From assembly GCA_019748065.1 (NCBI GenBank), contig JAIEQB010000009.1, forward strand, positions 1 to 52,854: a stretch of DNA of 52,854 bases, in the 5' to 3' direction. Origin of the DNA: Alphaproteobacteria bacterium (GTDB lineage: Bacteria; Pseudomonadota; Alphaproteobacteria; UBA9655). The notes below the pieces were generated by a model. That model saw only the letters and a list, made by a program, of their open reading frames with translations. It ran no database searches and was not told the DNA's origin. Of this stretch, positions 351-28,952 are shown piece by piece. Every line of letters starts with the position of its first letter. Positions within the stretch are counted from its first letter, which is position 1. A program made the position numbers and the translations under genes.

Positions 351-1034
351 ATGATTAAAGATTTTATTAAAGTTGCTCTATTTATTTCAACTTTCTCTCT
401 TTACCCATCCTTACCATTGTTTGCAATGGATGATGAATTTGAGTTAGATGTGGGAAATACGCCATGTGCAAAATTGCGTGAAATCCCCGTAGAGAGTTTT
501 AAAAAACCTCGTATTAAGTTAACAAATATTACTTCATATACAAAACTATCCGAAATAGGACCTAAAATACTTGAATCTATAGAACATGTTATTTCTACAA
601 AACATAATAAGGCTCCCTTTGTTATTAACACAATTGAATATAGCTATGATACAAGCAAGGGAACGAAAGATTGGCAATATCATGTTAATGAATTTATGGA
701 TAAAATAGCGAGAGGGATAAAAGTCGTTAAACGAAGGGATAAAGATAGAAACTGGTATTTCTGTTTTGAAGAATCACATTATCCTGATTTTAGATGTTAC
801 ACTATTGTAGTGATTTGTAATAATGAGGTAAATTATTATACAAGACAATGGCAACAAAAAGAAGAGGCAAAGCTTTTAGGGGCAGTTATGTTTCCATCGG
901 GAGAAGGTGTTTATGAGCAAGTATTTGATATAGACACTGGTGAGATTGGATGGGTTTCTCGGCAAGAAGAGGAAGATGAGGAAAGAAGAGCGGATCGTAG
1001 AGACAGAGGGTTGGATTCTTCTGACGAAGATTAA
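351..1034 (+). CDS. Secreted protein of unknown function
   Basis: I do not recognise this 227-aa protein. Its first 25 residues form a clear Sec signal peptide: a Lys near the N-terminus, a hydrophobic core, and a Leu-Phe-Ala end before an acidic stretch (MDDEFELD). The rest is mixed alpha/beta with several Trp and Tyr residues and no visible membrane segment. The last 25 residues are highly charged, with alternating Glu, Asp and Arg. The start is set by AGGAGG five bases before the ATG. It converges with the small secreted-protein gene at 1134-1322. It sits at the edge of a block of exported proteins, so an envelope or host-directed role is possible, but that is inference from context only. 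Confidence 0.75.
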   Translation: MIKDFIKVALFISTFSLYPSLPLFAMDDEFELDVGNTPCAKLREIPVESFKKPRIKLTNITSYTKLSEIGPKILESIEHVISTKHNKAPFVINTIEYSYDTSKGTKDWQYHVNEFMDKIARGIKVVKRRDKDRNWYFCFEESHYPDFRCYTIVVICNNEVNYYTRQWQQKEEAKLLGAVMFPSGEGVYEQVFDIDTGEIGWVSRQEEEDEERRADRRDRGLDSSDED

Positions 1035-1133
1035 TTAAAGACAGCTCTTATAAGTGGAAATTGTACGCACAGTAATTTACTTTTTTGCATATTACAAAAA
1101 CCGTAAGAGAATGACTGCCCCTAAAAGATTTTG

Positions 1134-1322
1134 CTATTTGCAGCCAGGCTGACCTGGATTATCATAACAACTGACCTCTTTAGATTGTTGGTCATTTTGT
1201 TTAGTAATGGGTGGCTCAGGATGGACGGGCCTCCCATGTCCCCTCGAAAAAGCATTCATTTGAGTTGCGGATAAAACTCCTAAAATAATGGCACAAAATA
1301 CAATTGGTTTGATGGATTTCAT
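1134..1322 (-). CDS. Small secreted protein with Cys-Pro-Gly tail (copy 1)
   Basis: A 62-aa protein with a signal peptide (hydrophobic core followed by MNAFS), a short His/Pro-rich middle, and the C-terminal motif CYDNPGQPGCK. A paralog at 4636-4983 has the same signal-peptide pattern and the same last 12 residues. I chose the ATG at 1322 over one nine codons upstream. It is preceded by AAAGGAG-CTAAGGAA, which matches the spacing at the paralog's start, and the homology begins there. The DNA around the 3' end is nearly identical to that of the paralog, so this is a recent duplication in direct orientation. The two conserved cysteines could form a disulfide-closed loop after export. Function unknown. 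Confidence 0.65.
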   Translation of the reverse strand: MKSIKPIVFCAIILGVLSATQMNAFSRGHGRPVHPEPPITKQNDQQSKEVSCYDNPGQPGCK

Positions 1323-1650
1323 TTCCTTAGCTCCTTTATAAATTGACAATTCATCATGCTTTTAACGGCATCATAAAAATACTTTCATTAATTATATTGT
1401 ACACGCATTTCGTTAATTCAATATTAACAACTGAGAAAGAATTTCTCGAAGTCAAAATTCTCTGTACCTCCATACAAAAACACACCACTTCACTTATTGC
1501 ATTCAATTTGCTCAATTATTGAGAATTGACTTTTGCTGATTTTTACTCTCTAATTAAAAATAATTTTTATTTATTCTCGGGATATAGTGTGATTTACAGT
1601 GGGGCCCTGGAGATCAGCTTTCATATCGAATACAGAGGTTTATTTGTATC
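1323..1650. other. Intergenic region between divergent genes
   Basis: AT-rich spacer between the minus-strand small secreted gene and the plus-strand 975-aa gene. It should hold both promoters, but no -35/-10 pair stands out with confidence. A weak ribosome binding site (AGAGG) lies about ten bases before the ATG at 1651. Confidence 0.5.
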
Positions 1651-4578
1651 ATGAAAAAGCTTTTTCAAGCTGTAGATATTAAAAAATGGGCGAAAAAAAT
1701 AACGGCCTCTACGATTATCGCATCTTTGCTCATGATAGATGCAGCAAAAGCCATGGAGGATGATCATGATCCTCACTTTTCAAAAGTACTTCAAAGAACA
1801 CCCTCTCCAAAGCCCCGAACTACAGATCTGGAAATTATCGACAGTGATTCTTCTAAGCAAAGTTCTAGCTCAGAGGATAGCGGCTCTTCTCCAGAAAAGC
1901 TTACCCCTGAGGGAAATCAAAGTTTACCCATCATTCCCTTCCCCGGTTTTTCACTAAGCCATAGCCAAGATATAGCCTCTACAATTTCTCCTTCTATCGC
2001 TCTTCTAACTTCTTCCCTACAACCGCTTGAAATTGTCCCTCAACCAGATTTTGGGACAACTCCTGTCACAGGGTCTCTGCAAGATAGAGTGCCTTCTCCT
2101 CAAGTTTTTTTTGGCCCCCGTGAGACGAGTTCGAGTTCCCAAGATGTCAATTCCCATGGAAACTCAAGACTGAGTGAAGAAGATCCTCTTTTAGATTATG
2201 ATTCAAATAGCTTTAGCAGCAGTGATTCAAGTTCAGATGAGCCATTTCCTTTTGCCGATCCATCTCACCCTGAAAGTGAGAAGTTGCCTTCTTCTGGCGG
2301 ATTTCGAGATGCTTTCGGGCGCTTCATAGGAAGGTTTACAAGTATTCAGCCACGTGGATATACCGGCTCAAGTCACCAAGATGCGCTTATCCCAGAACGT
2401 TGTAAAAGTACTTCCAATATTATTCCTAGAGGCGATGAGCCGGCTTTCTTATTGAGACAAAACAACGCTTCTATTCAATCGCAAGATCCTCTTCTTTCCG
2501 GGCAAGAGCTTTCCGTGAATGGGGACGTAGAAATTGTCGTTGACAATGGTTCTGTAAATCCAGGTTCCACAGGGCCAGCTTTGCCTCAACTAGATGAAAA
2601 TCCAGCCCCTCGATCAACTTCTTTTTTTGGGCGGCCTTTATGGCCTGAACGTTCTCAATATACTCTTGCTCCAGGGGCCCTTGACAGAGCGTCTCAATTT
2701 CTTATTCGATTTCGAGCCGCACATCACTCTAGTAATGATGATAGCGACAGATCAACGAGCTTTGAAAGTGACTCGCCCCCTCATGGATCTCCAACATTCT
2801 TACGGCATGGGCCGTTTCCAGATTTAGATAATGAGGGAGAAGAAGACGTTGGAGCCCAACTTTTACCAACTGCGCAGCCACTTTTACCAGCTGCACAGTC
2901 CTATGGAGCCCTCAGAACTTACTTGAATTTTGCTGAAATGCCTTCCTCTTCTCAGACTCTTTCTTCCTTTCCTCGGCACAATCAAGGACTTGATTCAACA
3001 GCTGCAGCCCTCTCACCCTCACAGCCTCTTTCACCTCAAGCCACCTGGTTAGAGCTTCTTGATGGCTTAAAAGATCTGCCTGCTACAACAAAAACCCAGT
3101 TAACAGATTTTACGCACCAAATCCTTAACGGTAAAAGTACGTGGTCTCAGCGCATTGGGAAATGGCTTATTGGACCACTTATTGGCGTAGGCTTTGCGTG
3201 GGCAATGGGGCCTGTCTATGATGGTGGACTTATGTACTTAGCTAATATAAGTGAAGGATTTAGTAGTAAATTCTTGAGAACAAATGCCAGCAACTATCTT
3301 GTTTTGTACATTAACTATAGCGCTGGTCCTGATGGTATTTCTCGAAATGCTCATTTGTGGAAAAAGGGAATTGCTTATCTTTCCAAAGAAAAAAAAGAGG
3401 TGGGACGGATGTGTATTGCAGGGGCCATAGCTGCTGTTACTGCCCTTATTCCTGTTGCTTATCTCATTTTAGCTGAAAACATTCCACGAGAAGAGCAGCA
3501 ACTCCCTAACTGGGACAACGGATTTGGAATTATTGTTGCTGCATTTGGTCCTGTTCTCTATATAGACGCTTTTGCAAAGGAGCTTGAAATAGCGCGGAAA
3601 ACCATTACCAATTTAGAAGATTGGTTTAGGCAAGCCAGAGAATTATTTTTTCCTTCATCCTTGCCTTATCAGATGAAGCCTTTTGACACCATTCAAAGAG
3701 AAAAGTTTGATCGTGACCTTATAAAATTAAAACATTTTCTTGTGGGAGCTTCAGGTGCAGTGATTGAAGCTATTTATAAGGATGTTCAAGATGTTATTGC
3801 AGGAGCACGCTCTGAATTAGATCTCAAGACTCAACAAGCTTTTGCGATGCTAAGTTACATGCTTTCTTTAGGGGATGAAGTGCAAGAAGTGGCAAAGAAA
3901 AACTCCAAAAAATCTATTGCTGAGATTGCATTTGATGGCTTGAAATATACCTGTTTAATTTTAGGAGCGCCTACGGTTGGGCTTCTTCTTCAGCTTGTAG
4001 GGTCAACAGTTGCTTCCCTTTTTACATCTACCGTTGTGGCTGATTCCATTGGAGAAGGATTTGCCCTTGTTGCTTTCCTTCCCTTTAACTATGTCCTATT
4101 CCAATCCATGGATAATTTTAAAAATCTTCTGATGAGCAAAGACCCTCAAGGCTATGAAAGCCATCCTGGCGCCCGATTGCCCGTAAAAGTATTTATTGGC
4201 ATTCAATCCTTTGTTTATTTGTTTCAAACCAGCATTGCTGTCCTTCAAAGTTATCAAAAGTGGTTTGGAGACCAGTGGTGGCCTTTTGCGGCAGGGATTC
4301 CTTTCTTTATTCCTAAGCTTATGGGACTTGCCACTAGTTTTAATGAAACTTTTAACGAACTGGTGACAACAGCTGCTATAAACGGGTACCATAAAATAGG
4401 TGGCAAGTGCAGAGGAAATTCTCTTTGTACCCCTTGTCAAAAAGATTGGCTGATTCGACTTGTTGAATCCAGTCGCAATGATTTAGAACATTGGGATCCA
4501 AAATTAATACACGACTTATCAAAAGGGGTAGAAATTTTTAAAAATGAAGAAGCCAATTCTTCCTTTGATGAGATTTGA
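1651..4578 (+). CDS. Large exported protein: Ser/Pro-rich N-terminal half and multi-pass membrane C-terminal half
   Basis: 975 aa, not recognised. Residues 1-35 look like a long signal peptide ending in an Ala-Lys-Ala site before MEDD. Residues about 40-460 are low-complexity, very rich in Ser, Pro, Asp and Gln, and probably disordered and exposed. The C-terminal half is ordered, with hydrophobic segments near residues 505-530, 586-608, 623-640, 765-795, 800-818, 845-868 and 873-895. Charged, helical loops lie between them (for example around 650-760). The tail has a Cys-rich patch (CRGNSLCTPC). It lies between the two copies of the small Cys-Pro-Gly gene, both on the other strand. A surface-exposed or host-interacting membrane protein is plausible, but no domain family was recognised. 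Confidence 0.75.
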   Translation: MKKLFQAVDIKKWAKKITASTIIASLLMIDAAKAMEDDHDPHFSKVLQRTPSPKPRTTDLEIIDSDSSKQSSSSEDSGSSPEKLTPEGNQSLPIIPFPGFSLSHSQDIASTISPSIALLTSSLQPLEIVPQPDFGTTPVTGSLQDRVPSPQVFFGPRETSSSSQDVNSHGNSRLSEEDPLLDYDSNSFSSSDSSSDEPFPFADPSHPESEKLPSSGGFRDAFGRFIGRFTSIQPRGYTGSSHQDALIPERCKSTSNIIPRGDEPAFLLRQNNASIQSQDPLLSGQELSVNGDVEIVVDNGSVNPGSTGPALPQLDENPAPRSTSFFGRPLWPERSQYTLAPGALDRASQFLIRFRAAHHSSNDDSDRSTSFESDSPPHGSPTFLRHGPFPDLDNEGEEDVGAQLLPTAQPLLPAAQSYGALRTYLNFAEMPSSSQTLSSFPRHNQGLDSTAAALSPSQPLSPQATWLELLDGLKDLPATTKTQLTDFTHQILNGKSTWSQRIGKWLIGPLIGVGFAWAMGPVYDGGLMYLANISEGFSSKFLRTNASNYLVLYINYSAGPDGISRNAHLWKKGIAYLSKEKKEVGRMCIAGAIAAVTALIPVAYLILAENIPREEQQLPNWDNGFGIIVAAFGPVLYIDAFAKELEIARKTITNLEDWFRQARELFFPSSLPYQMKPFDTIQREKFDRDLIKLKHFLVGASGAVIEAIYKDVQDVIAGARSELDLKTQQAFAMLSYMLSLGDEVQEVAKKNSKKSIAEIAFDGLKYTCLILGAPTVGLLLQLVGSTVASLFTSTVVADSIGEGFALVAFLPFNYVLFQSMDNFKNLLMSKDPQGYESHPGARLPVKVFIGIQSFVYLFQTSIAVLQSYQKWFGDQWWPFAAGIPFFIPKLMGLATSFNETFNELVTTAAINGYHKIGGKCRGNSLCTPCQKDWLIRLVESSRNDLEHWDPKLIHDLSKGVEIFKNEEANSSFDEI

Positions 4579-4635
4579 CAAAGAAAAATCCTATTTGACT
4601 CCTCGAATAAATTTTCTACCCCGGAAAAGATTTTG

Positions 4636-4983
4636 CTATTTGCAGCCAGGTTGACCTGGATTATCATAACAACTGACCCTTGGCTTAGCTTGGTCCTTTT
4701 GCCCAGTAACGGTAGTGCCACCTTCAGGGACAACAACTTCTTCAGAGATCACACCACCAGGGGTAACAACCTCAGGACCTCTATGTCTGCTTACCTGTGG
4801 GGTGGTCGTTCCTGATGGGGTTCCAGAGGGATGTGCACCCGGATTATTAATGGTATGGGGAACTTCCTGATGTTCAAAGTGTGGTCTGGGCCCCTCACGT
4901 CCTCGCGCAAAAGCATCCATTTGAGTCACGGATAAAGCTGCTAAAACAAGGGTGCCAAATACAATTGGTTTGAGTGTTGACAT
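4636..4983 (-). CDS. Small secreted protein with Cys-Pro-Gly tail (copy 2)
   Basis: 115 aa, paralog of the protein at 1134-1322. The N-terminus is a signal peptide (hydrophobic core ending MDAFA). The middle is longer than in copy 1, rich in Pro, Gly, Thr and Val, with no predicted compact domain. The last 12 residues (SCYDNPGQPGCK) are identical to copy 1. The ATG at 4983 is preceded by AAAAGGAGTTAGGAAA, the same leader pattern as copy 1. The size difference lies entirely in the Pro/Gly-rich spacer, so the conserved parts are the export signal and the Cys-loop tail. That is the pattern of a precursor whose C-terminus is the functional part. This reading is inference. Confidence 0.65.
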   Translation of the reverse strand: MSTLKPIVFGTLVLAALSVTQMDAFARGREGPRPHFEHQEVPHTINNPGAHPSGTPSGTTTPQVSRHRGPEVVTPGGVISEEVVVPEGGTTVTGQKDQAKPRVSCYDNPGQPGCK

Positions 4984-5278: not shown

Positions 5279-7450
5279 ATGAAAAATATAAAAATTAAAG
5301 CAGTGTTAGTCTCATGGTTTATCCTTGGTGGAATGGAGATACATGCTGAACCTTCAGCAAATAGTTTTTATCAGGATGAATCTTATAAAGAACTCCTCAA
5401 TACAAAAGATATCATTGCCTTAGAGCTTTCCCCAGACAATCATCATGTGCTTCTGACCTATGCGACACCCCAGGTATATGACTCAAAAGAAGGAATACTT
5501 AGTCAATGGCAATTGGTAACGCTTGTGAAGAATGACTATAAATCAGCAAAAAGCCATACGGTTACGTTTCCTGAGGATAAAGGAATTGACCTTGCCACAT
5601 GGATCCCAAATTCTCAGAACATTAGCTATTTAGGGCAAGGAGATAAATACGTAAGCCTCTGGGTAACACCCCATCAGGAATTTAAACCCAAGAAAATCAT
5701 AGAGCTCAATCATGATATTAAAAATTATTGGTGGTCTCCTGATGGTAAGAAATTAGCGATCTTGGTGCATGATCCACTCCCTTCAAGGGATTTAACCGTG
5801 TATGGCGAGGATGAAAGTGTTGCAGCAACCCTTTACATCATGGAGGCCAATGAAAAAGGAGACTTTATTGAAAAGGGGTCTTTTCCTTTAAAGTTTGAAG
5901 AAAAACTTTATCTTAGCTGGGTTCCTAGCAATGAAAAGGTTGTCTTAGGATATAAAGCACAAACTGATGCAATATTTCCTGTTTCCCAAATTATCCTCCT
6001 TGATCTTAAAACAAAAGAACAAAAAGCACTCGTTCAGGGAGAGCAGATGAATGTAAACGTGGTGCCCTCTCCTGACGGAAAATGGCTTGCCTATGTTACA
6101 ACAAGCTTTCCAGGGAACGCCCAAAACCCCATTCCTCTTTATCAAATGGATGCCTCAAGGGTATGCCTTATAAGCTTACAAGATAATCAAAAGCGGTGCC
6201 TTGCTCCAACACCGAATGAAAATTCCGAACTTGTGGGGTGGAAGCACGATGGAAAGTCAATATTTGTTGTTGATCAAGAGGGAATCAGCGATCAAATTTA
6301 CGAACTGGGCTTAGAGGGAGAAAAAACAACAAAACTTACCCAAGGGGAACAGTCTTTTCAGACTGTACAGCTTAACTCGGCTGGAGATGCCATCGTCTAT
6401 TCAAGTCAGAATCTTCAAATGCCAGTTGAGGGATATGTCACACCGGTAGATCGTTTCCTTCCTGAAAAAATAACGTCCCTTTCAAAACCTAACCTCCCAA
6501 GCCATCTTTCTATTGAAAAGGTTAAATGGAAATCGAAAGACAAAAAGTTTGATTTAGAAGGACTTGTGATTTACCCAAGCTCCACTCAAGAAAAAACTCT
6601 CTTTCCTCTTATGATTCTTCTTAAGAATTATTCTTCCCAATCAACTTTAGATTACCTTGGAAAGCTAGGTTCTATTCCTCTTTCGCCCCTGCGTTTACTA
6701 AAAAAAGGATATGCATTGTTTATCCCTACACGGCGAGGGGAAAATGGTTATGGAGTTCAGTTTCGTCAAGCTCTTTATAAGGAGTTAGGTAAAGGAGATT
6801 TTGAAGATATCATGGGCGGAATAGAGGCTGTGATTGAAGAAAAAAAAGTAGATCCAACCAACTTGGCTCTTTGGGGATGGGGGTATGGAGGCTATCTCTC
6901 GGCTTGGACTCTCACTCAAACAGCTCGCTTTAAAACCATCATTGTTGGGCAAGGAATAGCTAATCTTATCTCTCAGGTCGGTACAACCACAAAACCCGAG
7001 TTTCTGGAAGCTGTTATGGGGGGACCTTTTTGGAAGGACTTTAAGTTATGGGATGAAAGGTCTCCCATTTCTTATGTTAAGAATATGAATACCCCCACGT
7101 TTCTTCAATATGTAGATCCAGGTGAAGTTATTCACAAATCTCAAGGGGAAGAACTTTACTTTCCTCTGAGCACACGTGGGATAGCAACTACAATAAGTAC
7201 AGTAACTCCTGCTGAAAAACCTTTGAAACTCTCAGAAATATTGATTTCCGAGGAAGAACCCGAGCGAATACCAATGTTTGACTCAAAAGCTTCATTTGCA
7301 AGCTCACCGAGAGCTACTGAAATATGTAGATACTTAGAAGATGGAGATAACGTTAATGATCCACATCTGGTCTTATTAAGCATTCAAGATCTCGAGACAT
7401 GGCTAGAGGAATACTTCAAAATAGATTCAAACGTAAAAACAGAAAAATAG
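5279..7450 (+). CDS. S9-family peptidase homolog, probably catalytically dead
   Basis: 723-aa protein of the prolyl oligopeptidase (S9) family, with a signal peptide, a beta-propeller-like N-terminal domain (repeated SPDG-type blades) and an alpha/beta-hydrolase C-terminal part. The active-site motif reads G-W-G-Y-G-G at 533-538, so the position of the nucleophilic serine in the G-x-S-Y-G-G motif of the three neighbouring paralogs is Gly535. The C-terminus after about residue 610 does not match the paralogs. The GQGH/GEGH catalytic-histidine block is missing, and a different, acidic 110-residue tail replaces it. This points to a non-enzymatic role or decay, although the reading frame is open throughout. 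It is the first of four tandem paralogs, and the next gene starts 10 bp downstream. Confidence 0.85.
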   Translation: MKNIKIKAVLVSWFILGGMEIHAEPSANSFYQDESYKELLNTKDIIALELSPDNHHVLLTYATPQVYDSKEGILSQWQLVTLVKNDYKSAKSHTVTFPEDKGIDLATWIPNSQNISYLGQGDKYVSLWVTPHQEFKPKKIIELNHDIKNYWWSPDGKKLAILVHDPLPSRDLTVYGEDESVAATLYIMEANEKGDFIEKGSFPLKFEEKLYLSWVPSNEKVVLGYKAQTDAIFPVSQIILLDLKTKEQKALVQGEQMNVNVVPSPDGKWLAYVTTSFPGNAQNPIPLYQMDASRVCLISLQDNQKRCLAPTPNENSELVGWKHDGKSIFVVDQEGISDQIYELGLEGEKTTKLTQGEQSFQTVQLNSAGDAIVYSSQNLQMPVEGYVTPVDRFLPEKITSLSKPNLPSHLSIEKVKWKSKDKKFDLEGLVIYPSSTQEKTLFPLMILLKNYSSQSTLDYLGKLGSIPLSPLRLLKKGYALFIPTRRGENGYGVQFRQALYKELGKGDFEDIMGGIEAVIEEKKVDPTNLALWGWGYGGYLSAWTLTQTARFKTIIVGQGIANLISQVGTTTKPEFLEAVMGGPFWKDFKLWDERSPISYVKNMNTPTFLQYVDPGEVIHKSQGEELYFPLSTRGIATTISTVTPAEKPLKLSEILISEEEPERIPMFDSKASFASSPRATEICRYLEDGDNVNDPHLVLLSIQDLETWLEEYFKIDSNVKTEK

Positions 7451-7460
7451 GAAAGCTCTC

Positions 7461-9521
7461 ATGGCTATCAAAAGAACTTGGAAATTAAGGGGACACGCAT
7501 TCCTTTTGCAGCTCTTCTTCTGTTTTGTATATTCTCCTTGTGTTGCCGAAAAAGAAAATGCCACTGCTCCCTTGAAGCCCCTCTGGACACCGGAAGATTG
7601 CGTGACTCTTCCTGAAGAAACAGTAAAGGACATTTCTTCTGATGGAAAGTATACCCTCATAAGGGTCGATCATACTTCTCTCGAAAATGATAAAGCCAAA
7701 GAATATTCAACATGTGTGTTAGTAAATAATGAGACTTTGAAAGAGGAAAGAATAATTGGAGAGTTCAATTATTCCTGTATCCAGCCTCAATTTATTGGAA
7801 AGGGTCAATTTTTCTCATACATTACGATAGATACTCATGGAGGAGAAAGAACATCTACTCTCTTTGTGCAAGAGATCTCCTCTAAAAAACAAACGAAAGT
7901 ACAAGAGCTCAGCAATGATCTCCAGAACTATATTTTTGCACCCGATGGAAAGAGTTTTGCCTTTTTAACTTATCTTTATGTCAAACAAAGTGACAGCACT
8001 AAAACAGTTCTGGGTTTTCAAAAAGTAAATAAGGATTTCCAGCCCATAGGTTCTGCCTTGTATAAATCTGAATTTGATTTGTATAGCCCCTTTGATTCTT
8101 CCTTTTATCGATGGTCTCCGGATAGTCAGAAAGTTGCTTTTGTTGCAACAACATTATTTTGGAGGAGTGATCCCAAAGCCACGGTTTACATTCTAGATAT
8201 TGGAAAAGATAAACTCACAGAAATCGATGACGTTATTGGAGATATGGGAGATCTAGCTTTTTCACCTGACAGTCAAAAGTTAGCCTTTATAAAGGGAGAT
8301 GGCTATGGAAAACAGAAGACTCCTCTTAAACCCTTCAAAGAGCTAGAGCCTGATACGATTCAAGTCGTTGACTTAAAAACAGAGAATGTGATGAGCATAG
8401 ATGCCGTAGATATAGAGCATATAGCTGGCTGGACAGAAAACAACAAGGCCCTCATTGTCACTAAGCAAGTGGGAACAAAACTACAACTCTATTCTCTTGA
8501 TATAGAGACAAAAAAATTAACCTTAATGGAGGTTCCTGACGTAACTTATATTACCAACGCTATCCTTTCTTCCAATAGTAAATATATAGGCTTTTCCGGA
8601 GAGAATCTTCATCAACCTTCGGCAAGTTATGTTTCTAACCTGGATTCATTTTTTCCTAAGAAGGTAAGCACTGTTAACGAAAAGATAAATTTAACAGCCC
8701 TTAAGGCTACTCCTATTACCTGGAAATCCTATGATGGCCTTGAGATTGAAGGGATCCTTACCTACCCACAAGATTATAAACCAGGTCAAAAAGTTCCTTT
8801 ATTGGTGTCGATACAAGGAGGTCCTGGAGGGGTAGAATCACAACAATTTATTGGTAAAAAGCTATTTGAACCCTTTTCTCCCGCCGTTTTTGCATCTCAA
8901 GGGGTTGCGACCTTGGTAGTGAACTACAGAGGATGCCGCGGATATGGGCAAAAATTTCAGGACAGTGATTATAAAGATTTAGGTGGAGGTGATTATAAAG
9001 ATATCATGACGGGTATCGACTATCTTGTTGACCAAGGAATTGCCGACCCTGATCAGCTCTTCATCAGAGGACCTAGCTATGGAGGTTTTTTAACAGCGTG
9101 GGCGATTGGCCATACGAATCGTTTTAAAGCCGCAATTGTTGAAGCAGGAACGGTAGATTGGATCTCTGATAGTGCGACAACAGATGCTCCCGTTCCTATG
9201 TCAATTCTGTTTGGAGGGGCCTATTGGGAAAATTATGAACTCTGGCGAGAAACTTCTCCTATAAGATACGTAAGTCGCATAGAAACGCCCACTCTTATTA
9301 TACAGGGGAAAAAGGATAAACGTGTTTCCACAACTCAGTCACTACAGCTTTATAGCGCCCTTAAAGCAAGAAACATTCCTACCCGTTTAGTTTATTATGA
9401 TGGACAGGGGCATAGTTTTTCTTCTCCCGTGGCACTCCGAGATGGGATGAATGAGACGTTAACATGGATGAAGACTTATGGGGGGAAGAAAGAAGCCATA
9501 AAAGAAAAACAGGTGAGGTAA
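7461..9521 (+). CDS. S9-family secreted prolyl oligopeptidase-like peptidase
   Basis: 686 aa. The N-terminal signal segment (residues about 5-28) suggests export to the periplasm or beyond. A seven-blade-like propeller region precedes the hydrolase domain. The catalytic triad is visible: Ser539 in GPSYGG, an Asp in the QGKKDKRV block, and His in YYDGQGH. S9 enzymes cleave short peptides, in this subgroup often as acylaminoacyl- or dipeptidyl-peptidases; the true substrate is unknown. It starts 10 bp after the previous paralog and its stop is 2 bp before the GTG of the next, so the cluster is probably one transcript. It shares long stretches with the two copies downstream. Confidence 0.88.
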   Translation: MAIKRTWKLRGHAFLLQLFFCFVYSPCVAEKENATAPLKPLWTPEDCVTLPEETVKDISSDGKYTLIRVDHTSLENDKAKEYSTCVLVNNETLKEERIIGEFNYSCIQPQFIGKGQFFSYITIDTHGGERTSTLFVQEISSKKQTKVQELSNDLQNYIFAPDGKSFAFLTYLYVKQSDSTKTVLGFQKVNKDFQPIGSALYKSEFDLYSPFDSSFYRWSPDSQKVAFVATTLFWRSDPKATVYILDIGKDKLTEIDDVIGDMGDLAFSPDSQKLAFIKGDGYGKQKTPLKPFKELEPDTIQVVDLKTENVMSIDAVDIEHIAGWTENNKALIVTKQVGTKLQLYSLDIETKKLTLMEVPDVTYITNAILSSNSKYIGFSGENLHQPSASYVSNLDSFFPKKVSTVNEKINLTALKATPITWKSYDGLEIEGILTYPQDYKPGQKVPLLVSIQGGPGGVESQQFIGKKLFEPFSPAVFASQGVATLVVNYRGCRGYGQKFQDSDYKDLGGGDYKDIMTGIDYLVDQGIADPDQLFIRGPSYGGFLTAWAIGHTNRFKAAIVEAGTVDWISDSATTDAPVPMSILFGGAYWENYELWRETSPIRYVSRIETPTLIIQGKKDKRVSTTQSLQLYSALKARNIPTRLVYYDGQGHSFSSPVALRDGMNETLTWMKTYGGKKEAIKEKQVR

Positions 9522-9523
9522 CA

Positions 9524-11581
9524 GTGTCCCAAAATCTTATCAAGAAACAGCCTCTCAATTTATTCTTGCTCTTCATTTTAGGAAGTTTTTCACCTGAAAA
9601 ATGTGAGGCTGAGCCTCGTAAGGCTGATCCTCCTCAAAAGCCTCTGTGGACGCCTGAAGATTGTGTGACTCTTCCCGTCGAAACAGTAGAGGATATTTCT
9701 TCCGATGGAAAGTATAGCCTTTTAAAGGTCTATTATACGACTCTCAAAAAAGACAAAGCCGAAGAATATTCAACGTGTGTGTTAGTCAATAATGAGACTT
9801 TAAAAAAAGAAATCATAATTGGAGAGTTCAATCATTCCTGTAACCAACCTCAATTTATTGGAAAGGGGCAATTTTTCTCATACATTATGAACGATACTTA
9901 TGGAGAAAAAGAAACATCAGCCCTCTTTGCTCAAGAGATCTCCTCTAAAAAACAAACAAAAATACAAGATCTGAGTAACGATCTCCAAAACTATATTTTT
10001 GCACCGAATGGAAAGAGCTTTGCTTTTTTAAACAAAAGCGGCTCAAAAAAAGAGGGGACTGTCAAATCAATTCTGGGTTTTCAGAAAGTAAGTCAGAATT
10101 TTCAGCCTATCGATCCTCCCCTCTACAAATCTGAATTTAATTTGTATGGTCCCTTTGATCCTTCTTCTTATCGATGGTCTCCTGATAGTCAGAAAATTGC
10201 TTTTGTGGGAATGATTCCTATTTGGAAAAGTGGGACTAAGGCGACTCTTTATCTTCTCGATTTAGAAAAAGATAAACTCACAGAAATTGATGAACTTGTT
10301 GGATTTCTTGGAGATCTAAGCTTTTCACCCAATGGCCAAAAATTAGCCTTTATAAAGGGAGATGACCGTGGAATACAGGAGACTCCTCTTAAATTCGTCA
10401 AAGATCAAAAATTCACAATTCAAGTGGTTGATTTGAGTACAGGCAAAACGGTGAGTATAGATGCCGTAGATATATGGCATATAGTAGGTTGGACAGAAAA
10501 CAATAAAGCCCTTATCGTCACCAAGCAAATTGGAACAAAGCAGCAACTTTTTTCCCTTGATATTGAAACAAAAAAACTAACCTTAATGGAGGTTCCCGAC
10601 ATCGCTTGTACTTATGGTCCTGTTTGTTCTTCTAATGGTAAATATATAAGTTTTTTGGGAGAGAATCTTCATCACCCCTCGGCAATTTACGTTTCCAAAA
10701 CGGATTTATTTTCTCCTAAGAAGATTAGTGCTCTTAATGAAAAAATCAATTTAACAGCCATTAAAGTAACTTCCATTACCTGGAAATCCTATGATGGACT
10801 CGAAATTGAAGGGATCCTCACCCATCCACAAGGCTATACAGAAGGTCAAAAAGTTCCCCTCATTGTATCGATACATGGAGGCCCTGGAGGGGTAGAATCT
10901 CAGTATTTTATTGGCAAAAATATGTTTGGGTCTTTTTCTCCTGCCGTTTTTGCATCTCAAGGATATGCTACCTTGGTAGTGAACTATAGGGGAAGTATTG
11001 GATATGGAATAAAATTTCAGGAAATTGATTACAAAGATTTAGGTGGGGGAGATTATCAGGATGTCATGACGGGAGTAGACTACCTTGTTAACAAAGGAAT
11101 TGCTGACCCAAATCAGCTCTTCGTTAGAGGACATAGTTATGGAGGGTTTTTGACAGCATGGACCATTGGTCATACGAATCGTTTTAAAGCGGCGGTTGTC
11201 GAGTCAGGAATTACAGATTGGATCTCTGATATTGCGACAACAGACGCTCCTGTTACAATGGAAGGGTATTTTGGGGGAGCCTATTGGGATGATTATGAAC
11301 TCTGGAGAAAAACTTCTCCCATAAGATATGTAAGTCGCATGGAAACCCCTACACTTATCTTGCAAGGAGGAAGTGATAAGCGAGTTCCTACAGGTCAATC
11401 GATGCAGCTTTATAACGCCCTTGAAGCAAGAAACATCCCCACCCGTTTAGTTTACTATGATGGACAGGGGCATGGCCTTGACTCTCCCATAGCAACTCGA
11501 GATGCAATGAACGAAATGCTAACCTGGATGAAGGCTTATGGGGGAAAGAAAGAACCTATGAAAGAGAAAAAGGTAAAGTAG
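9524..11581 (+). CDS. S9-family secreted prolyl oligopeptidase-like peptidase
   Basis: 685 aa, intact S9 peptidase with Ser538 in GHSYGG, Asp in QGGSDKRV and His in GQGHGL. I use the GTG start at 9524, not an in-frame ATG 60 bp upstream. The GTG lies two bases after the stop of the preceding gene, has AGGTGAGG just upstream, and starts the same sequence (SQNxIKKQ) with which the next paralog starts at its ATG. The signal peptide is about 30 residues, with a hydrophobic core of Leu and Phe. It is part of a tandem amplification. Peptide degradation outside the cytoplasm, perhaps on host-derived peptides, is the likely role but is inference. Confidence 0.88.
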   Translation: MSQNLIKKQPLNLFLLFILGSFSPEKCEAEPRKADPPQKPLWTPEDCVTLPVETVEDISSDGKYSLLKVYYTTLKKDKAEEYSTCVLVNNETLKKEIIIGEFNHSCNQPQFIGKGQFFSYIMNDTYGEKETSALFAQEISSKKQTKIQDLSNDLQNYIFAPNGKSFAFLNKSGSKKEGTVKSILGFQKVSQNFQPIDPPLYKSEFNLYGPFDPSSYRWSPDSQKIAFVGMIPIWKSGTKATLYLLDLEKDKLTEIDELVGFLGDLSFSPNGQKLAFIKGDDRGIQETPLKFVKDQKFTIQVVDLSTGKTVSIDAVDIWHIVGWTENNKALIVTKQIGTKQQLFSLDIETKKLTLMEVPDIACTYGPVCSSNGKYISFLGENLHHPSAIYVSKTDLFSPKKISALNEKINLTAIKVTSITWKSYDGLEIEGILTHPQGYTEGQKVPLIVSIHGGPGGVESQYFIGKNMFGSFSPAVFASQGYATLVVNYRGSIGYGIKFQEIDYKDLGGGDYQDVMTGVDYLVNKGIADPNQLFVRGHSYGGFLTAWTIGHTNRFKAAVVESGITDWISDIATTDAPVTMEGYFGGAYWDDYELWRKTSPIRYVSRMETPTLILQGGSDKRVPTGQSMQLYNALEARNIPTRLVYYDGQGHGLDSPIATRDAMNEMLTWMKAYGGKKEPMKEKKVK

Positions 11582-11583
11582 TC

Positions 11584-13629
11584 ATGTCCCAAAATTTTAT
11601 CAAGAAACAATCTCTCAACTTATTCTTGGTCCTCATTTTAGGAAGTTTTTCACCTGAAAAGTGTAAGGCTGATCCTCTTCAAAAACCATTGTGGACAGTG
11701 GAAGATTGTGTGACTCTCCCCGGAGAAGTGGTAGAGGACATTTCTTCTGATGGAAAGTATACCCTTTTAAGCACCTCTTATACGACTCTTAAACGAGATA
11801 AAGCTGAAGAATATTCAACGTGCGTGTTAGTGAACAATGAGACTTTAGAAAAAGAAATAATAATTGGAGAGTTCAATCATTCCTGTGTCCAAGCACAATT
11901 TATTGGAAAGGGTGAGTTTTTCTCATACATTATGAATGATACTCAGGGAGAAGAAGAAACATCAGCCTTCTTTGTTCAAGAGATCTCCTCTAAAAAGCAA
12001 ACGAAAATACAAGATCTAAGCGATGGTTTCCAAGAGTATACTTTTGCACCGGATGGAAAGAGCTTTGCTTTTTTAAACCAGAGTGGTTCCAAAAAAGAGG
12101 GAACTGTCAAAACAATTCTGGGTTTTCAGAAAGTAGATAAGAATTTTCAGCCTGTCGGGCCTGCTCTATTCAAATCTGAGGTTAACTTATATAACCCCTT
12201 TGATTCTTCTTCTTATCGATGGTCTCCTGATAGTCAGAAAGTTGCTTTTGTTGGAATAGCTCCTATTTGGAAAAGTGGTACTAAGGCTACCCTTTATCTC
12301 CTAGATTTAGAAAAAGATAAACTTACAGAAGTCGATGAAGTCATTGGATTTCTTGGAGATCTAAGTTTTTCACCCAATGGCCAAAAATTAGCCTTTATAA
12401 GGGCAGATGGGTTTGGAACACAGGAGACTCCTCTTAAATCCTTCAAAGACCAAGAACCTCCTACAATTCAAATTGTTGACTTAAATACAGGTAAGACGGT
12501 GAGTATAGATGCCGTAGATATATGGCATATAGCTGGTTGGACAGAAAATAATAAAGCCCTTATCATCACTAAGCAAGTTAGAACAAAGCAGCAAGTTTTT
12601 TCCCTTGATATTGAAACAAAAAAACTCACCTTAATGGAAGTTCCTGATCTTGCTTGTGTTTATACTCCTACTTTCTCTTCTAACTCTAAATATATAGCTT
12701 TTTCTGGGGAGGATCTTCATCTACTCTCAGCAAGTTATATCTCAAACATGGATTCATTCTCTCCTAAAAGGATAAGTGCTCTTAATGAAAAAATAAATTT
12801 GACACCTCTTAAAGCAACTCCTATTACCTGGAAATCCTATGATGGACTAGAGATTGAAGGAATCCTTACCACCCCACAAGGCTATACAGAAGGTCAAAAA
12901 GTTCCCTTAGTTGTGTCAATACACGGAGGTCCTGCAGGGGTAGAGTCACAGCGATTTATTGGCAAAACCTCCTTTGGAGCATTTTCTCCCGCCGTCTTTG
13001 CCTCTCAAGGATATGCGGTCTTGTTTGTGAACTACAGAGGAAACCTCGGATATGGGGAAAAATTTCAGGATATTGATTATAAAGACTTAGGAGGAGGAGA
13101 TTATCAAGACGTCATGACGGGAGTAGATCACCTGGTTAACAAAGGAATTGCTGATCCGGATCAACTCTTTCTCAGAGGACATAGCTATGGAGGGTTTCTG
13201 ACAGCATGGGCGATTGGTCATACGAATCGTTTTAAAGCCGCAGTTGTTGATGCAGGAACGGTAGATTGGATCTCTGATATTGCTCTAAAAGATGTGTCGA
13301 CCCCGTGGGAAGCTTTACTTGGAGGGGCATACTGGGATGATTATGAATTCTGGAGAAAAGCCTCTCCCATAAGATATACGGCTAATATAAAAACCCCTAC
13401 ACTTATCTTGCAAGGAGAGAATGATAAACGAATTCCTACAAATCAATCTATGCAGCTTTATAGCGCCCTAAAATCAAGAAAGATTCCGACTCGTTTAGTT
13501 TACTATAAAGGGGAAGGGCATGGACTTCACTCTCCCATAGCACTCAGAGATGCTATGAATGAGATGCTCACATGGATAAAGACTTATGGTGGTAAAAAAG
13601 AAGCTGAGAAAGAGAAACAGAGAGAATAA
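11584..13629 (+). CDS. S9-family secreted prolyl oligopeptidase-like peptidase
   Basis: 681 aa, last of four tandem paralogs. The triad residues are present: Ser534 in GHSYGG, Asp in QGENDKRI, His in GEGHGL. The N-terminal signal peptide is almost the same as in the preceding copy. The ATG at 11584 lies two bases after the previous stop. The propeller part shares many identical blocks with the two upstream copies, so the duplications are recent or the copies have been homogenised by gene conversion. The oxyanion-loop region (HGGPAGVESQ) differs slightly from the HGGPGG of the copy upstream, which may hint at altered substrate preference. Confidence 0.88.
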   Translation: MSQNFIKKQSLNLFLVLILGSFSPEKCKADPLQKPLWTVEDCVTLPGEVVEDISSDGKYTLLSTSYTTLKRDKAEEYSTCVLVNNETLEKEIIIGEFNHSCVQAQFIGKGEFFSYIMNDTQGEEETSAFFVQEISSKKQTKIQDLSDGFQEYTFAPDGKSFAFLNQSGSKKEGTVKTILGFQKVDKNFQPVGPALFKSEVNLYNPFDSSSYRWSPDSQKVAFVGIAPIWKSGTKATLYLLDLEKDKLTEVDEVIGFLGDLSFSPNGQKLAFIRADGFGTQETPLKSFKDQEPPTIQIVDLNTGKTVSIDAVDIWHIAGWTENNKALIITKQVRTKQQVFSLDIETKKLTLMEVPDLACVYTPTFSSNSKYIAFSGEDLHLLSASYISNMDSFSPKRISALNEKINLTPLKATPITWKSYDGLEIEGILTTPQGYTEGQKVPLVVSIHGGPAGVESQRFIGKTSFGAFSPAVFASQGYAVLFVNYRGNLGYGEKFQDIDYKDLGGGDYQDVMTGVDHLVNKGIADPDQLFLRGHSYGGFLTAWAIGHTNRFKAAVVDAGTVDWISDIALKDVSTPWEALLGGAYWDDYEFWRKASPIRYTANIKTPTLILQGENDKRIPTNQSMQLYSALKSRKIPTRLVYYKGEGHGLHSPIALRDAMNEMLTWIKTYGGKKEAEKEKQRE

Positions 13630-25502: not shown

Positions 25503-26054
25503 CTAGAGGCTAACAGTGAATTCGTTCTTGGATTTTTCAAGTTTTACCCTTACTTGTTTAAGAGTAGGAAAAAATTTTTGAAGGCAAGCTAATATCACGA
25601 AATCATACTGTCCTATAGATTTAATAGTATCTTTTGGACAATAAAGATCTACTTGCTTACGCTGAGGCAAGAGTGGGCCCAATTGACATTCTGATAACTT
25701 TAAAATGAACAAAGGAGGCATTAGATTTTGAATTTCCATGCACACGTGCTTCCAAAGAGGGTCTTTAATGCTTGAAAGAGGGTTTTCTGCTTTCTTTACA
25801 AAATAATGATCCGTTGTAAAATGCCAAGGAGCTGTAAAAACAGAGAAGGCCTTTCTTCTATGAAAGCCGGTGGAAACATTTCCGGTGGGAAAGTTTATCT
25901 TTCTCGAGATTTTTATTCTTCTACAAGATGTTGATGGCATTTCTATATTTGCATTAAGCATAAGTCCTCTCATGTAGTTCTTAAAATATAACTTGCTACC
26001 CCTCCGTTTTATGCTGTACCTTATTTCAAGGCTTTGATTTTTTAGACAGTACAA
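25503..26054 (-). CDS. Hypothetical protein, possibly a remnant related to the tra-linked replication-like protein
   Basis: 183-aa frame, not firmly recognised. Its C-terminal part resembles the C-terminal region of the 494-aa protein at 49407-50891. Both have SIKDP(L/V)W followed by a helical stretch, then two beta-like segments and FP.(L/V)(K/R).(V/L)R.(K/R)L near the end. The N-terminal 70 residues are basic and unlike that protein. The start is uncertain: ATG 26054 or one near 25961. It lies between the broken traD copy and the amidase, an area of rearrangement, so it may be a truncated fragment. Confidence 0.4.
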   Translation of the reverse strand: MYCLKNQSLEIRYSIKRRGSKLYFKNYMRGLMLNANIEMPSTSCRRIKISRKINFPTGNVSTGFHRRKAFSVFTAPWHFTTDHYFVKKAENPLSSIKDPLWKHVCMEIQNLMPPLFILKLSECQLGPLLPQRKQVDLYCPKDTIKSIGQYDFVILACLQKFFPTLKQVRVKLEKSKNEFTVSL

Positions 26055-27680: not shown

Positions 27681-28952
27681 TTAGAAAGCATAGGAATTGG
27701 CTAAGCTTGGTTTCATAAGAATTCGTTTTTGAACTTTTGAAGAAGCTATAATAGAAACACCCGCAATAAGAGCTCCAAAGAGTATCCAAACCGCCGGCCA
27801 GTTAAGATGTTGAGTCTGATTTATAATATATACAAGAAAAACTGGGGTGAGACCACCAAACAAAGAAATCCCTAAGCTTAAACTAAATGATACGCCTCGA
27901 CAGCGCCCTTTCACATCAAAAAGGCTTGCCGTAAGCCCATTGGCTGGCCCCACGAATAGGCCTGCCAATATGGAAAGGATTATTTCTCCTTGGATCATAA
28001 GTGATAACTCCCCAGATCGTATAAGCCAAAAGGCAGGATATGCGAGCAAAAGAGTGGCTAAAACAATCGTTAACATGACTTTCTGGGGGCCAAATTTATC
28101 GGCCATATATCCGGCTAAAGCAAGGCAAAACATATACACGACAAGTCCAAGCGTGATGATGGAGAGGGTTGTTGACATCGATAGAGAGGTCACAAGCGTA
28201 TGATAATGTCCCATAAAAACAAAGGGAACGTAGTAAAGAACACCGATAAAGCACCCGATTCCAAAAGTGATAAAAAGGGAAGAAAAGTTGTTTTTAATAA
28301 GATCAACAAAGCTTTCAGTCCCTTCTTTCTGTGCTTTATTAAAGGCTGAAGTTTCTTGTGTATTCTTTCGTATATAAAAGCCTATCAAGCCAATAGGAAA
28401 ACTTAAAAGAAAAGGGACCCTCCATCCCCAGTCTGGCATTGCCTCAAGGGCACAAAGAGAGGCCATGCTAGAGGCAGCGAGCATACCCACCACGGATGAA
28501 GCGGTCACCAAACTTCCAGAAAAGTATATTCTATCTTCTTTGGCGTGCTCGATCACAAAAATAGCCGCCCCGCTAAATTCTCCTCCAGCGCATAAGCCCT
28601 GTAATAAGCGACAAAGGGACAGTGCAATGGGGGCTAAAAGCCCTATTTGGCTATAGGTAGGCAAAAGACCGATTAAACTGGTGGGAAGGACAACAGCAAG
28701 AATGGAGATCACCATGGCTTTTTTTCGCCCAAAGGTATCCCCAATATAGCCAAAAACAATGCCTCCAAGAGGACGAATTAAGAAACCGGCTGCAAAAATG
28801 CAATAACTGGCAATTAAAGCTGCAATCGGATCTTCTTTCGGAAAAAAAAGAGTTGAGAATATGGGGGCTAAAAGCCCAAAAAGGGCAAAGTCATAAAACT
28901 CTAAGGCCGTTCCAATAAAAGCAGCTGCAAAGTTTTTTCCTTGTTTTTGCAT
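27681..28952 (-). CDS. MFS transporter, MHS (metabolite:H+ symporter) type
   Basis: 423 aa with about 12 hydrophobic segments. The N-terminus (GTALEFYDFALFGLLAP) and the first cytoplasmic loop motif (GYIGDTFGRKKAM, the G-x-x-x-D-x-x-G-R-[KR] MFS signature) match the MHS subfamily, which includes transporters for proline/betaine, citrate and shikimate. It should import a small organic molecule with protons across the inner membrane. It lies between the convergent amidase gene and the LysR gene upstream on the same strand, a typical catabolic arrangement. Substrate not predictable. Confidence 0.88.
   Translation of the reverse strand: MQKQGKNFAAAFIGTALEFYDFALFGLLAPIFSTLFFPKEDPIAALIASYCIFAAGFLIRPLGGIVFGYIGDTFGRKKAMVISILAVVLPTSLIGLLPTYSQIGLLAPIALSLCRLLQGLCAGGEFSGAAIFVIEHAKEDRIYFSGSLVTASSVVGMLAASSMASLCALEAMPDWGWRVPFLLSFPIGLIGFYIRKNTQETSAFNKAQKEGTESFVDLIKNNFSSLFITFGIGCFIGVLYYVPFVFMGHYHTLVTSLSMSTTLSIITLGLVVYMFCLALAGYMADKFGPQKVMLTIVLATLLLAYPAFWLIRSGELSLMIQGEIILSILAGLFVGPANGLTASLFDVKGRCRGVSFSLSLGISLFGGLTPVFLVYIINQTQHLNWPAVWILFGALIAGVSIIASSKVQKRILMKPSLANSYAF

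What the first reader, a model, noticed from the sequence alone, without database searches (positions are those of the whole stretch)
1134..4983. Two related small secreted proteins with an identical Cys-loop tail flank a large membrane protein
Both small proteins keep the signal peptide and the ending CYDNPGQPGCK, while the middle differs in length from a few dozen to about 80 residues. The conserved, Pro-rich, two-Cys tail looks like a functional peptide with a disulfide loop. They bracket a 975-aa surface-like protein and lie beside four prolyl-peptidase-type genes. This could be a previously undescribed secreted peptide system; the link between these genes is speculative.
Basis: partly seen in the sequence, partly recalled or inferred. 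Interest (0 to 1): 0.65.

Follow-up and report, generated by a model that had tools for sequence, protein, structure and literature searches.

The report
Tail-to-tail secreted peptide and membrane-protein pair
A small secreted-type protein ending in a two-cysteine loop is encoded tail-to-tail with a large membrane-type protein, an undescribed, fast-reshuffling gene pair that may be a toxin-and-protector or signal-and-receptor system of one little-known group of bacteria.

Summary
The 62-aa and 115-aa proteins are paralogous, secreted-type proteins ending in CYDNPGQPGCK, and both look like genuine genes under selection. The large gene's partner is the 115-aa gene, which converges on it (57 bp between stops). 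The 62-aa gene is an orphan; in a related genome its counterpart is paired with a second large gene. Searches found 24 large-gene places (plus one read by eye) in 11 of 17 genomes of the order, all in one genus, and none outside that genus in sampled class and phylum genomes. A convergent secreted-type partner with C-terminal cysteines follows 18 of 22 large genes, against 0 of 69 other genes in the same loci. The exact tail differs between relatives; a C-x(4-8)-C loop recurs. In the closest comparisons the Cys tail, the gap and the large C-domain form one DNA block that duplicates together; tails are also swapped alone. No library names either protein; AlphaFold failed. Best reading: a rapidly exchanged cognate pair, most like a polymorphic (perhaps pore-forming) toxin with a secreted immunity protein on the opposite strand. 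Function is inferred, not shown.

The parts
4636..4983 (-). Small secreted-type protein, 115 aa, Cys tail CYDNPGQPGCK; convergent partner of the large gene (57 bp between stops)
   Evidence: dN/dS
4625..4678 (-). 54-bp tail tract (Cys tail, stop, 11 bp beyond), 53/54 identical to that of the 62-aa gene; lies in a block of local divergence against G010
1651..4578 (+). Large protein, 975 aa: signal-peptide-like start, about 430 residues rich in Ser/Pro/Asp, then a C-terminal domain with about 7 hydrophobic segments (family-averaged hydropathy, several weak)
   Evidence: no family found
3052..4575 (+). C-domain of the large protein used as the family query (dN/dS 0.12-0.27 in three comparisons)
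1134..1322 (-). Orphan small secreted-type protein, 62 aa, same Cys tail, no large gene of its own here; its 60-aa counterpart in G010 is convergent with a second large gene
1123..1176 (-). 54-bp tail tract of the orphan gene, matching the one at 4625-4678
351..1034 (+). 227-aa secreted-type protein beside the unit in G000, G003, G010 and L095; no family found
5279..13629 (+). Four Peptidase_S9 (prolyl oligopeptidase family) ORFs; loosely linked, not shown to belong to the unit

Best explanation
A polymorphic, convergent two-gene antagonism or recognition module. The large protein is Sec-exported, carries a long disordered stretch and inserts its helical C-terminal domain into a membrane; the most likely role is a membrane-active (pore-type) effector against related cells. 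The small Sec-exported protein is its cognate extracytoplasmic partner, most likely the immunity (neutralising) protein, with the C-terminal disulfide loop as a specificity element. Because the two genes face each other, the two C-termini lie in one stretch of DNA, so one recombination event can replace effector domain and partner tail together. Shown here: the two families, convergent pairing, modular exchange, selection on the reading frames. Inferred: export, disulfide, physical contact, toxicity, immunity.
For: Pairing: 18 of 22 large genes against 0 of 69 control ORFs (Fisher 1.5e-15; genes are related, so not independent). Without demanding Cys, 18 of 23 against 2 of 66, and all 18 partners have at least 2 Cys in the last 40 residues. 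Loop C-x(4-8)-C in 20 of 20 small proteins compared. Modular large proteins: G008 C147 and C140 share the N-half (83%; DNA 89.6% over 1.74 kb) but not the C-domain (30%). Same-genome pairs have N more similar than C by over 5 points in 6 of 14 cases, cross-genome pairs in 1 of 24 (Fisher 0.006; rank test 0.077; pairs not independent). Unit: in G010 the duplicated block starts inside the small gene (last 71 bp, the Cys tail) and ends 22 bp upstream of the large start; G003 C65 against G000 and against G010 shows one block of tail end, gap and C-domain. G008 C147 and C148 share the 5' half of the small gene but have different tails and very distant C-domains. dS between G000 and G010 is 0.51 in the C-domain against 0.16 (115-aa gene), 0.29 (large N) and 0.24 (227-aa gene). 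Orphan small genes exist, as immunity genes do. Immunity genes of ionophoric colicins lie on the opposite strand with their own promoter (PMC9517006, passages).
Against: No match worth naming in Pfam, NCBIfam or PDB for 16 C-domains, nor in PHROGs or PADLOC for the window proteins. A partial Mantel test does not single out the C-domain: tail~C given N r=0.17, p=0.085; tail~N given C r=0.35, p=0.004. The joint block is not universal: DNA matches of C73 (both genes) to C65, and among C140, C36 and C22, cover the large gene but not the small tail. Between G000 and G010 the tail was replaced while the C-domain stayed about 85% alike, and the two G010 copies share a tail while their C-domains differ at about 17%. 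dS is also raised in one S9 gene (0.42). G008 C82 has no partner that I could find, and in C140 and C36 the small gene's 5' part is lost to mobile-element sequence. A Sec signal on a multi-spanning protein fits no delivery system found here. AlphaFold gave no usable model.
Confidence: 0.4

Rival explanations
1. Peptide and receptor: the small protein is a secreted pro-peptide (signal or bacteriocin-like), its C-terminal disulfide loop is the active part, and the large membrane protein is its cognate receptor, exporter or self-protection; the S9 peptidases process or clear the peptide.
For: Secreted-type start, variable middle (up to 330 aa in G013) and short Cys loop near the end; an [HR]P[ED][STA] motif in 11 of 20; S9 genes near large genes in the window/G010, G014 C4, G008 C148, G004 C257 and, as a below-cut-off fragment, G005 C29.
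Against: No exporter or modification gene was recognised by eye in the ORF lists, though most neighbours were not annotated. S9 and large genes do not co-occur strictly: by strong S9 matches, 7 genomes have both, 2 S9 only, 3 large only, 5 neither (my count, weak G011 as neither). A receptor with a 400-700 residue disordered region would be unusual.
Confidence: 0.25
2. Host-facing pair: both proteins are secreted or displayed toward a protist host, and the reshuffling is antigenic or host-specificity variation rather than bacterial antagonism.
For: Multi-copy, seen only in one genus, diverged middles of both genes, Ser/Pro-rich region in the large protein. TraC on this contig is nearest, among plasmid records, to Protochlamydia naegleriophila from Naegleria, at 41%.
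Against: The host of these MAGs is unknown; no eukaryote-like domain stood out. Does not by itself explain the one-to-one convergent pairing.
Confidence: 0.2
3. The small protein is a periplasmic assembly factor or subunit of the large membrane protein with no conflict role.
For: Near-regular pairing and co-duplication in G010; C-domain under purifying selection.
Against: Orphan small genes, tail swapping alone and patchy presence within a genus are unusual for a housekeeping complex.
Confidence: 0.1
4. Two unrelated cargo genes that travel together on mobile DNA; the pairing has no functional meaning.
For: The window contig is plasmid-like (RepA_C, ParA/ParB, F-type T4SS), and MFS or conjugation-type genes lie near several other pairs.
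Against: Pairing holds for C-domains only 20-26% identical to the window's and in different surroundings, against 0 of 69 controls; only two contigs hold both a TraG match and a large gene (contigs are fragments).
Confidence: 0.05

Closest known systems
Pore-forming (ionophoric) colicins with their immunity genes
   Same: Large effector gene with a membrane-type C-terminal domain and a small partner gene on the opposite strand, expressed separately (review PMC9517006, passages).
   Different: No colicin domain in Pfam scans; the large protein has its own signal-peptide-like start and about 7 hydrophobic segments; the small protein is secreted-type with a Cys loop, not a polytopic inner-membrane protein (that colicin immunity proteins are polytopic is recalled).
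Polymorphic toxin systems (CDI, Rhs, MafB and others)
   Same: Shared N-terminal part with exchanged C-terminal domain (here G008 C147/C140), adjacent small partner; Sec-exported forms with lineage-specific N-termini and tandem immunity genes are described (PMC3482391, abstract and passages).
   Different: No known toxin or immunity domain; partner gene is convergent, whereas these systems are described with the immunity gene directly following the toxin gene (PMC8163844 passage); the exchanged DNA can also carry the partner's own C-terminal tail.
CRCT/CRCA toxin-antidote modules of Rickettsia and relatives
   Same: Cryptic C-terminal domain with an adjacent small antidote gene, thought to circulate in a mobile gene pool, in intracellular Alphaproteobacteria (PMC9111745, abstract and passages).
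   Different: Their C-terminal domain is about 145 aa and the antidotes, about 140 aa, are encoded upstream; no sequence comparison was made here.
Polymorphic toxin loci of Ca. Bodocaedibacter vickermanii (Paracaedibacter-like endosymbiont)
   Same: Several putative toxin-partner loci with orphan modules in a protist endosymbiont (PMC8163844, abstract and passages).
   Different: Toxin and antitoxin domains are recognisable in part; no Cys-tail partner is mentioned in the passages read ('cysteine' does not occur in the text).

Membership tests
Polymorphic toxin system | Constant N-terminal region joined to different C-terminal domains | tested here: met
   C147/C140: N 83%, C 30%; DNA match 1.74 kb then stops. 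Not general: 6 of 14 same-genome pairs have N above C by more than 5 points, 6 have the reverse by 18 or more.
Polymorphic toxin system | Recognisable toxin domain | tested here: not met
   No Pfam, NCBIfam or PDB match worth naming for 16 C-domains; PADLOC none for four window proteins.
Polymorphic toxin system | Cognate small gene next to the 3' end | tested here: met
   18 of 22 against 0 of 69, but on the opposite strand.
Polymorphic toxin system | Partner neutralises the toxin | not testable with these tools
   Needs expression experiments.
Pore-forming colicin | Colicin pore-forming domain | tested here: not met
   No such family among the Pfam matches.
Pore-forming colicin | Immunity gene on opposite strand | tested here: met
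   Position only; feature from PMC9517006 passages.
Pore-forming colicin | Immunity protein is a multi-spanning membrane protein (recalled) | tested here: not met
   The partner test excluded ORFs with a later hydrophobic 19-mer and still found 18 of 23.
Class II microcin | Double-glycine leader and dedicated exporter (recalled) | tested here: inconclusive
   Starts read as Sec signal peptides, and no exporter was recognised, by eye only.
CRCT/CRCA | Similarity to the CRCT C-terminal domain | not tested
   No CRCT sequence was fetched for comparison.

The most novel reading that the evidence does not exclude
A new class of polymorphic recognition system in which the specificity parts of both partners, the Cys-loop tail of a secreted protein and the C-terminal membrane domain of its large partner, are encoded tail-to-tail in one exchange cassette, so that one recombination event changes lock and key together while shorter tracts re-tune the tail alone.
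Probability: 0.25. Interest if true: 0.85.

Novelty: new variant of a known kind. Interest (0 to 1): 0.6.

Why it matters
If right, convergent orientation would be explained by recombination logic: both interacting ends sit in one DNA segment. It would add an unrecognised conflict or recognition system, unnamed by the family libraries searched, in a poorly known genus of Alphaproteobacteria, and it gives a cheap experimental handle: a short putative disulfide loop with many natural variants and known neighbours to test as partners.

Tried and rejected
Exact tail as a conserved peptide: rejected, because relatives carry other loops and the window's identity is a recent tract.

Structure: two AlphaFold jobs on the C-domain (508 aa, and its last 225 aa; 9 sequences each) gave mean pLDDT 39.2 and 44.0, so no fold search was run. 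They support only 'mostly helical'.

C-domain-specific co-variation by Mantel test: not supported.

Relatives elsewhere: 289 class genomes (3 with a match, all of the same genus) and 398 phylum genomes (only the window's own), overlapping samples; none in viral contigs with the closer alignment A4 or in plasmids with the window's C-domain. No Rfam family or tRNA in the window. Promoter and terminator scans were no better than shuffles.

Literature: the listings (10, 12, 0, 0, 4 and 8 papers shown) held nothing that describes this pair; passages of four papers were read. Most subscription papers and all preprints are outside the library.
Full report
What is there. The minus strand of the window carries two small ORFs, 62 aa (1134-1322) and 115 aa (4636-4983), with alike signal-peptide-like starts and the same last 13 residues, VSCYDNPGQPGCK. 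Signal peptides are judged here by inspection and a hydropathy rule, not by SignalP. Between them on the plus strand lies a 975-aa ORF (1651-4578) with a signal-peptide-like start, about 430 Ser/Pro/Asp-rich residues and a C-terminal domain with about seven hydrophobic segments by family-averaged hydropathy, several of them weak. Against the 95%-identical locus L095 the small genes give dN/dS 0.14 and 0.15 on few changes; against G010 the 115-aa gene gives 0.71, its replaced tail included. The large C-domain gives 0.12-0.27 in the three cross-locus comparisons.

How far the family reaches. The C-domain profile found 24 places in 11 of 17 genomes of the order, all in the window's own genus; a second large gene in G005 was found by reading its neighbourhood, making 25. 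One of the 24 (G011) is weak and looks degenerate, and two are fragments at contig ends (G004 C257, G008 C148). Overlapping samples of 289 class genomes and 398 phylum genomes gave no match outside the genus. The genome-contig scan, which may leave out the window's own genome, returned 7 loci: six from MAGs named 'Alphaproteobacteria bacterium' and one contig filed under a Flavobacteriales MAG that carries the window's layout at 95% identity and is probably misbinned.

The pairing. For 18 of 22 large genes a convergent, secreted-type ORF of 45-350 aa with at least two Cys in its last 40 residues ends within 150 bp of the large stop; the same test gave 0 of 69 other ORFs of 250 aa or more in those loci (Fisher 1.5e-15). 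The 22 include the near-identical G003 copy of the window locus, and the genes are related to each other, so the p-value overstates independence. With a stricter signal rule, a 200-bp limit and no Cys demand the result is 18 of 23 against 2 of 66; all 18 partners have the Cys; of the two controls one has two Cys by chance and the other is a Cys-less member of the small family itself. The 23rd large gene, in G005, has a 70-aa Cys-tailed ORF 175 bp away whose start fails my hydropathy rule. The four misses are G006a (a frameshifted partner remains), G008 C82 (a helicase/Toprim-domain gene, perhaps of a conjugative element, sits there), and G008 C140 and C36 (5' part of the partner replaced by mobile-element sequence by eye, Cys tail still readable). 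G004's small gene lies about 0.5 kb from a large fragment. The pairing holds for C-domains only 20-26% identical to the window's.

The tail. Twenty small proteins were compared; all 20 have a loop C-x(4-8)-C, for example CYDNPHC, CAHNPNC, CGHDPSSPGC, CIDDPEGC, CSYIAPC, CSPYGNPTC, CSLNGC. Four have extra Cys, and in five 8-21 residues follow the last Cys. Left out of that set were the intact 105-aa member of G000 C66, which has no Cys tail, G003 C140, cut by a contig end, and a degenerate 51-aa frame in G000 C74. Eleven of the 20 have an [HR]P[ED][STA] motif, usually shortly before the tail. In the window the two tails share a 54-bp tract (53 identical) that crosses the stop codon, between dissimilar flanks. 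Against G010 the same place is a block of about 70 bp of low identity (about 60% by eye) between nearly identical stretches. So tails are replaced by short tracts. In L095 the two tails differ from each other only at two silent sites and the stop codon, which hints that the tail sequence matters once acquired.

The unit of exchange. In G010 two copies lie in tandem. The duplicated block (88.4%) begins inside the small gene, in its last 71 bp, and ends 22 bp upstream of the large start codon. I read it as inserted into another small gene, whose 5' part now carries the new tail and whose 3' part remains as a decayed remnant next to the 227-aa gene; the window is continuous across that place, so its 62-aa gene would be the undisturbed counterpart. 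Between G003 C65 and G000 or G010 the contiguous block is the last 30-48 bp of the small gene, the gap and the large C-domain (80-81%), with the middle of the small gene and part of the large N-region diverged. Other comparisons do not include the tail: both C73 genes against C65, and C140, C36 and C22 against each other, match over the large gene but not the small tail. In G008, C147 and C148 share the 5' half of the small gene (171 bp at 72.5%) but have different tails and very distant C-domains (normalised similarity 0.03, both still in the family by profile); C147 and C140 share the large N-half but not the C-domain. Over all pairs with enough similarity, N exceeds C by more than 5 points in 6 of 14 same-genome and 1 of 24 cross-genome pairs (Fisher 0.006, rank test 0.077). 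dS between G000 and G010 is 0.51 in the C-domain, 0.29 in the large N-region, 0.16 in the 115-aa gene, 0.24 in the 227-aa gene, 0.25 and 0.42 in two S9 genes; between the two G010 copies it is 0.46 in C and 0.16 in N.

Against a tight lock. A partial Mantel test on 17 pairs does not single out the C-domain as the part that tracks the tail. The G000 and G010 orthologs have different tails on C-domains about 85% alike, and the two G010 copies have one tail on C-domains about 83% alike. The coupling is by DNA linkage and joint transfer in some cases, not by a demonstrated one-to-one code.

Mechanism. I put 0.4 on an effector-immunity pair, because of the constant-N, variable-C cases, orphan small genes, multi-copy patchy presence and the colicin-like opposite-strand partner (PMC9517006 passages; PMC3482391 abstract and passages). 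A peptide-receptor pair (0.25) and a host-facing pair (0.2) remain open. Export, disulfide formation, contact, toxicity and protection are all inferred.

Surroundings. The window contig looks like a conjugative plasmid or integrated element: RepA_C, ParA, ParB, IS21 IstB, and F-type TraD, TraG, TraC. The G010 counterpart is also on a contig with TraG, about 19-25 kb away; other large genes are on contigs without a TraG match, but contigs are fragments. Peptidase_S9 genes lie within about 8 kb of large genes in five contexts: window/G010, G014 C4, G008 C148, G004 C257 and, as a below-cut-off fragment, G005 C29. A hand estimate (24 large places, about three S9 clusters per 2-Mb genome, 16 kb each) gives about 0.6 expected. 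That suggests a shared island, not a shared pathway.

Noticed in passing
window 14905-48335: Contig is plasmid- or ICE-like: IS21 genes, ParA/ParB, RepA_C, a resolvase-like ORF (by eye), then an F-type conjugation gene set (TraD, TraG, TraC confirmed by Pfam).
   Followed up: partly
window 5279-7450: First of the four S9 peptidases reads GWGYGG where the others have GxSYGG, and its S9 match stops early; it is probably catalytically dead.
   Followed up: no
window 351-1034: 227-aa secreted-type protein with no family found, conserved beside the unit in G000, G003, G010 and L095.
   Followed up: partly
L025 2037-2354 (G000 C66): Member of the small-protein family without a Cys tail, ending after a poly-Ala stretch, with no large gene beside it.
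   Followed up: partly
L054 6845-7837: Small-family member of 330 aa with internal repeats, still ending in a two-Cys loop.
   Followed up: no
L095: Contig JALEGO010000178 filed under a Flavobacteriales MAG carries this alphaproteobacterial locus at 95% identity; probably misbinned.
   Followed up: no
L055, L056, L060, L061, L063 and window 27681-28952: An MFS transporter recurs near these gene pairs (Pfam), in some loci with a methyltransferase-like or LysR-like gene (by eye); may mark a shared genomic island.
   Followed up: partly
window 25503-26054, L056 14439-14891, L024 2758-3267: Short related-looking ORFs (ends alike by eye) near mobile genes; no Pfam match for the two that were scanned.
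   Followed up: no
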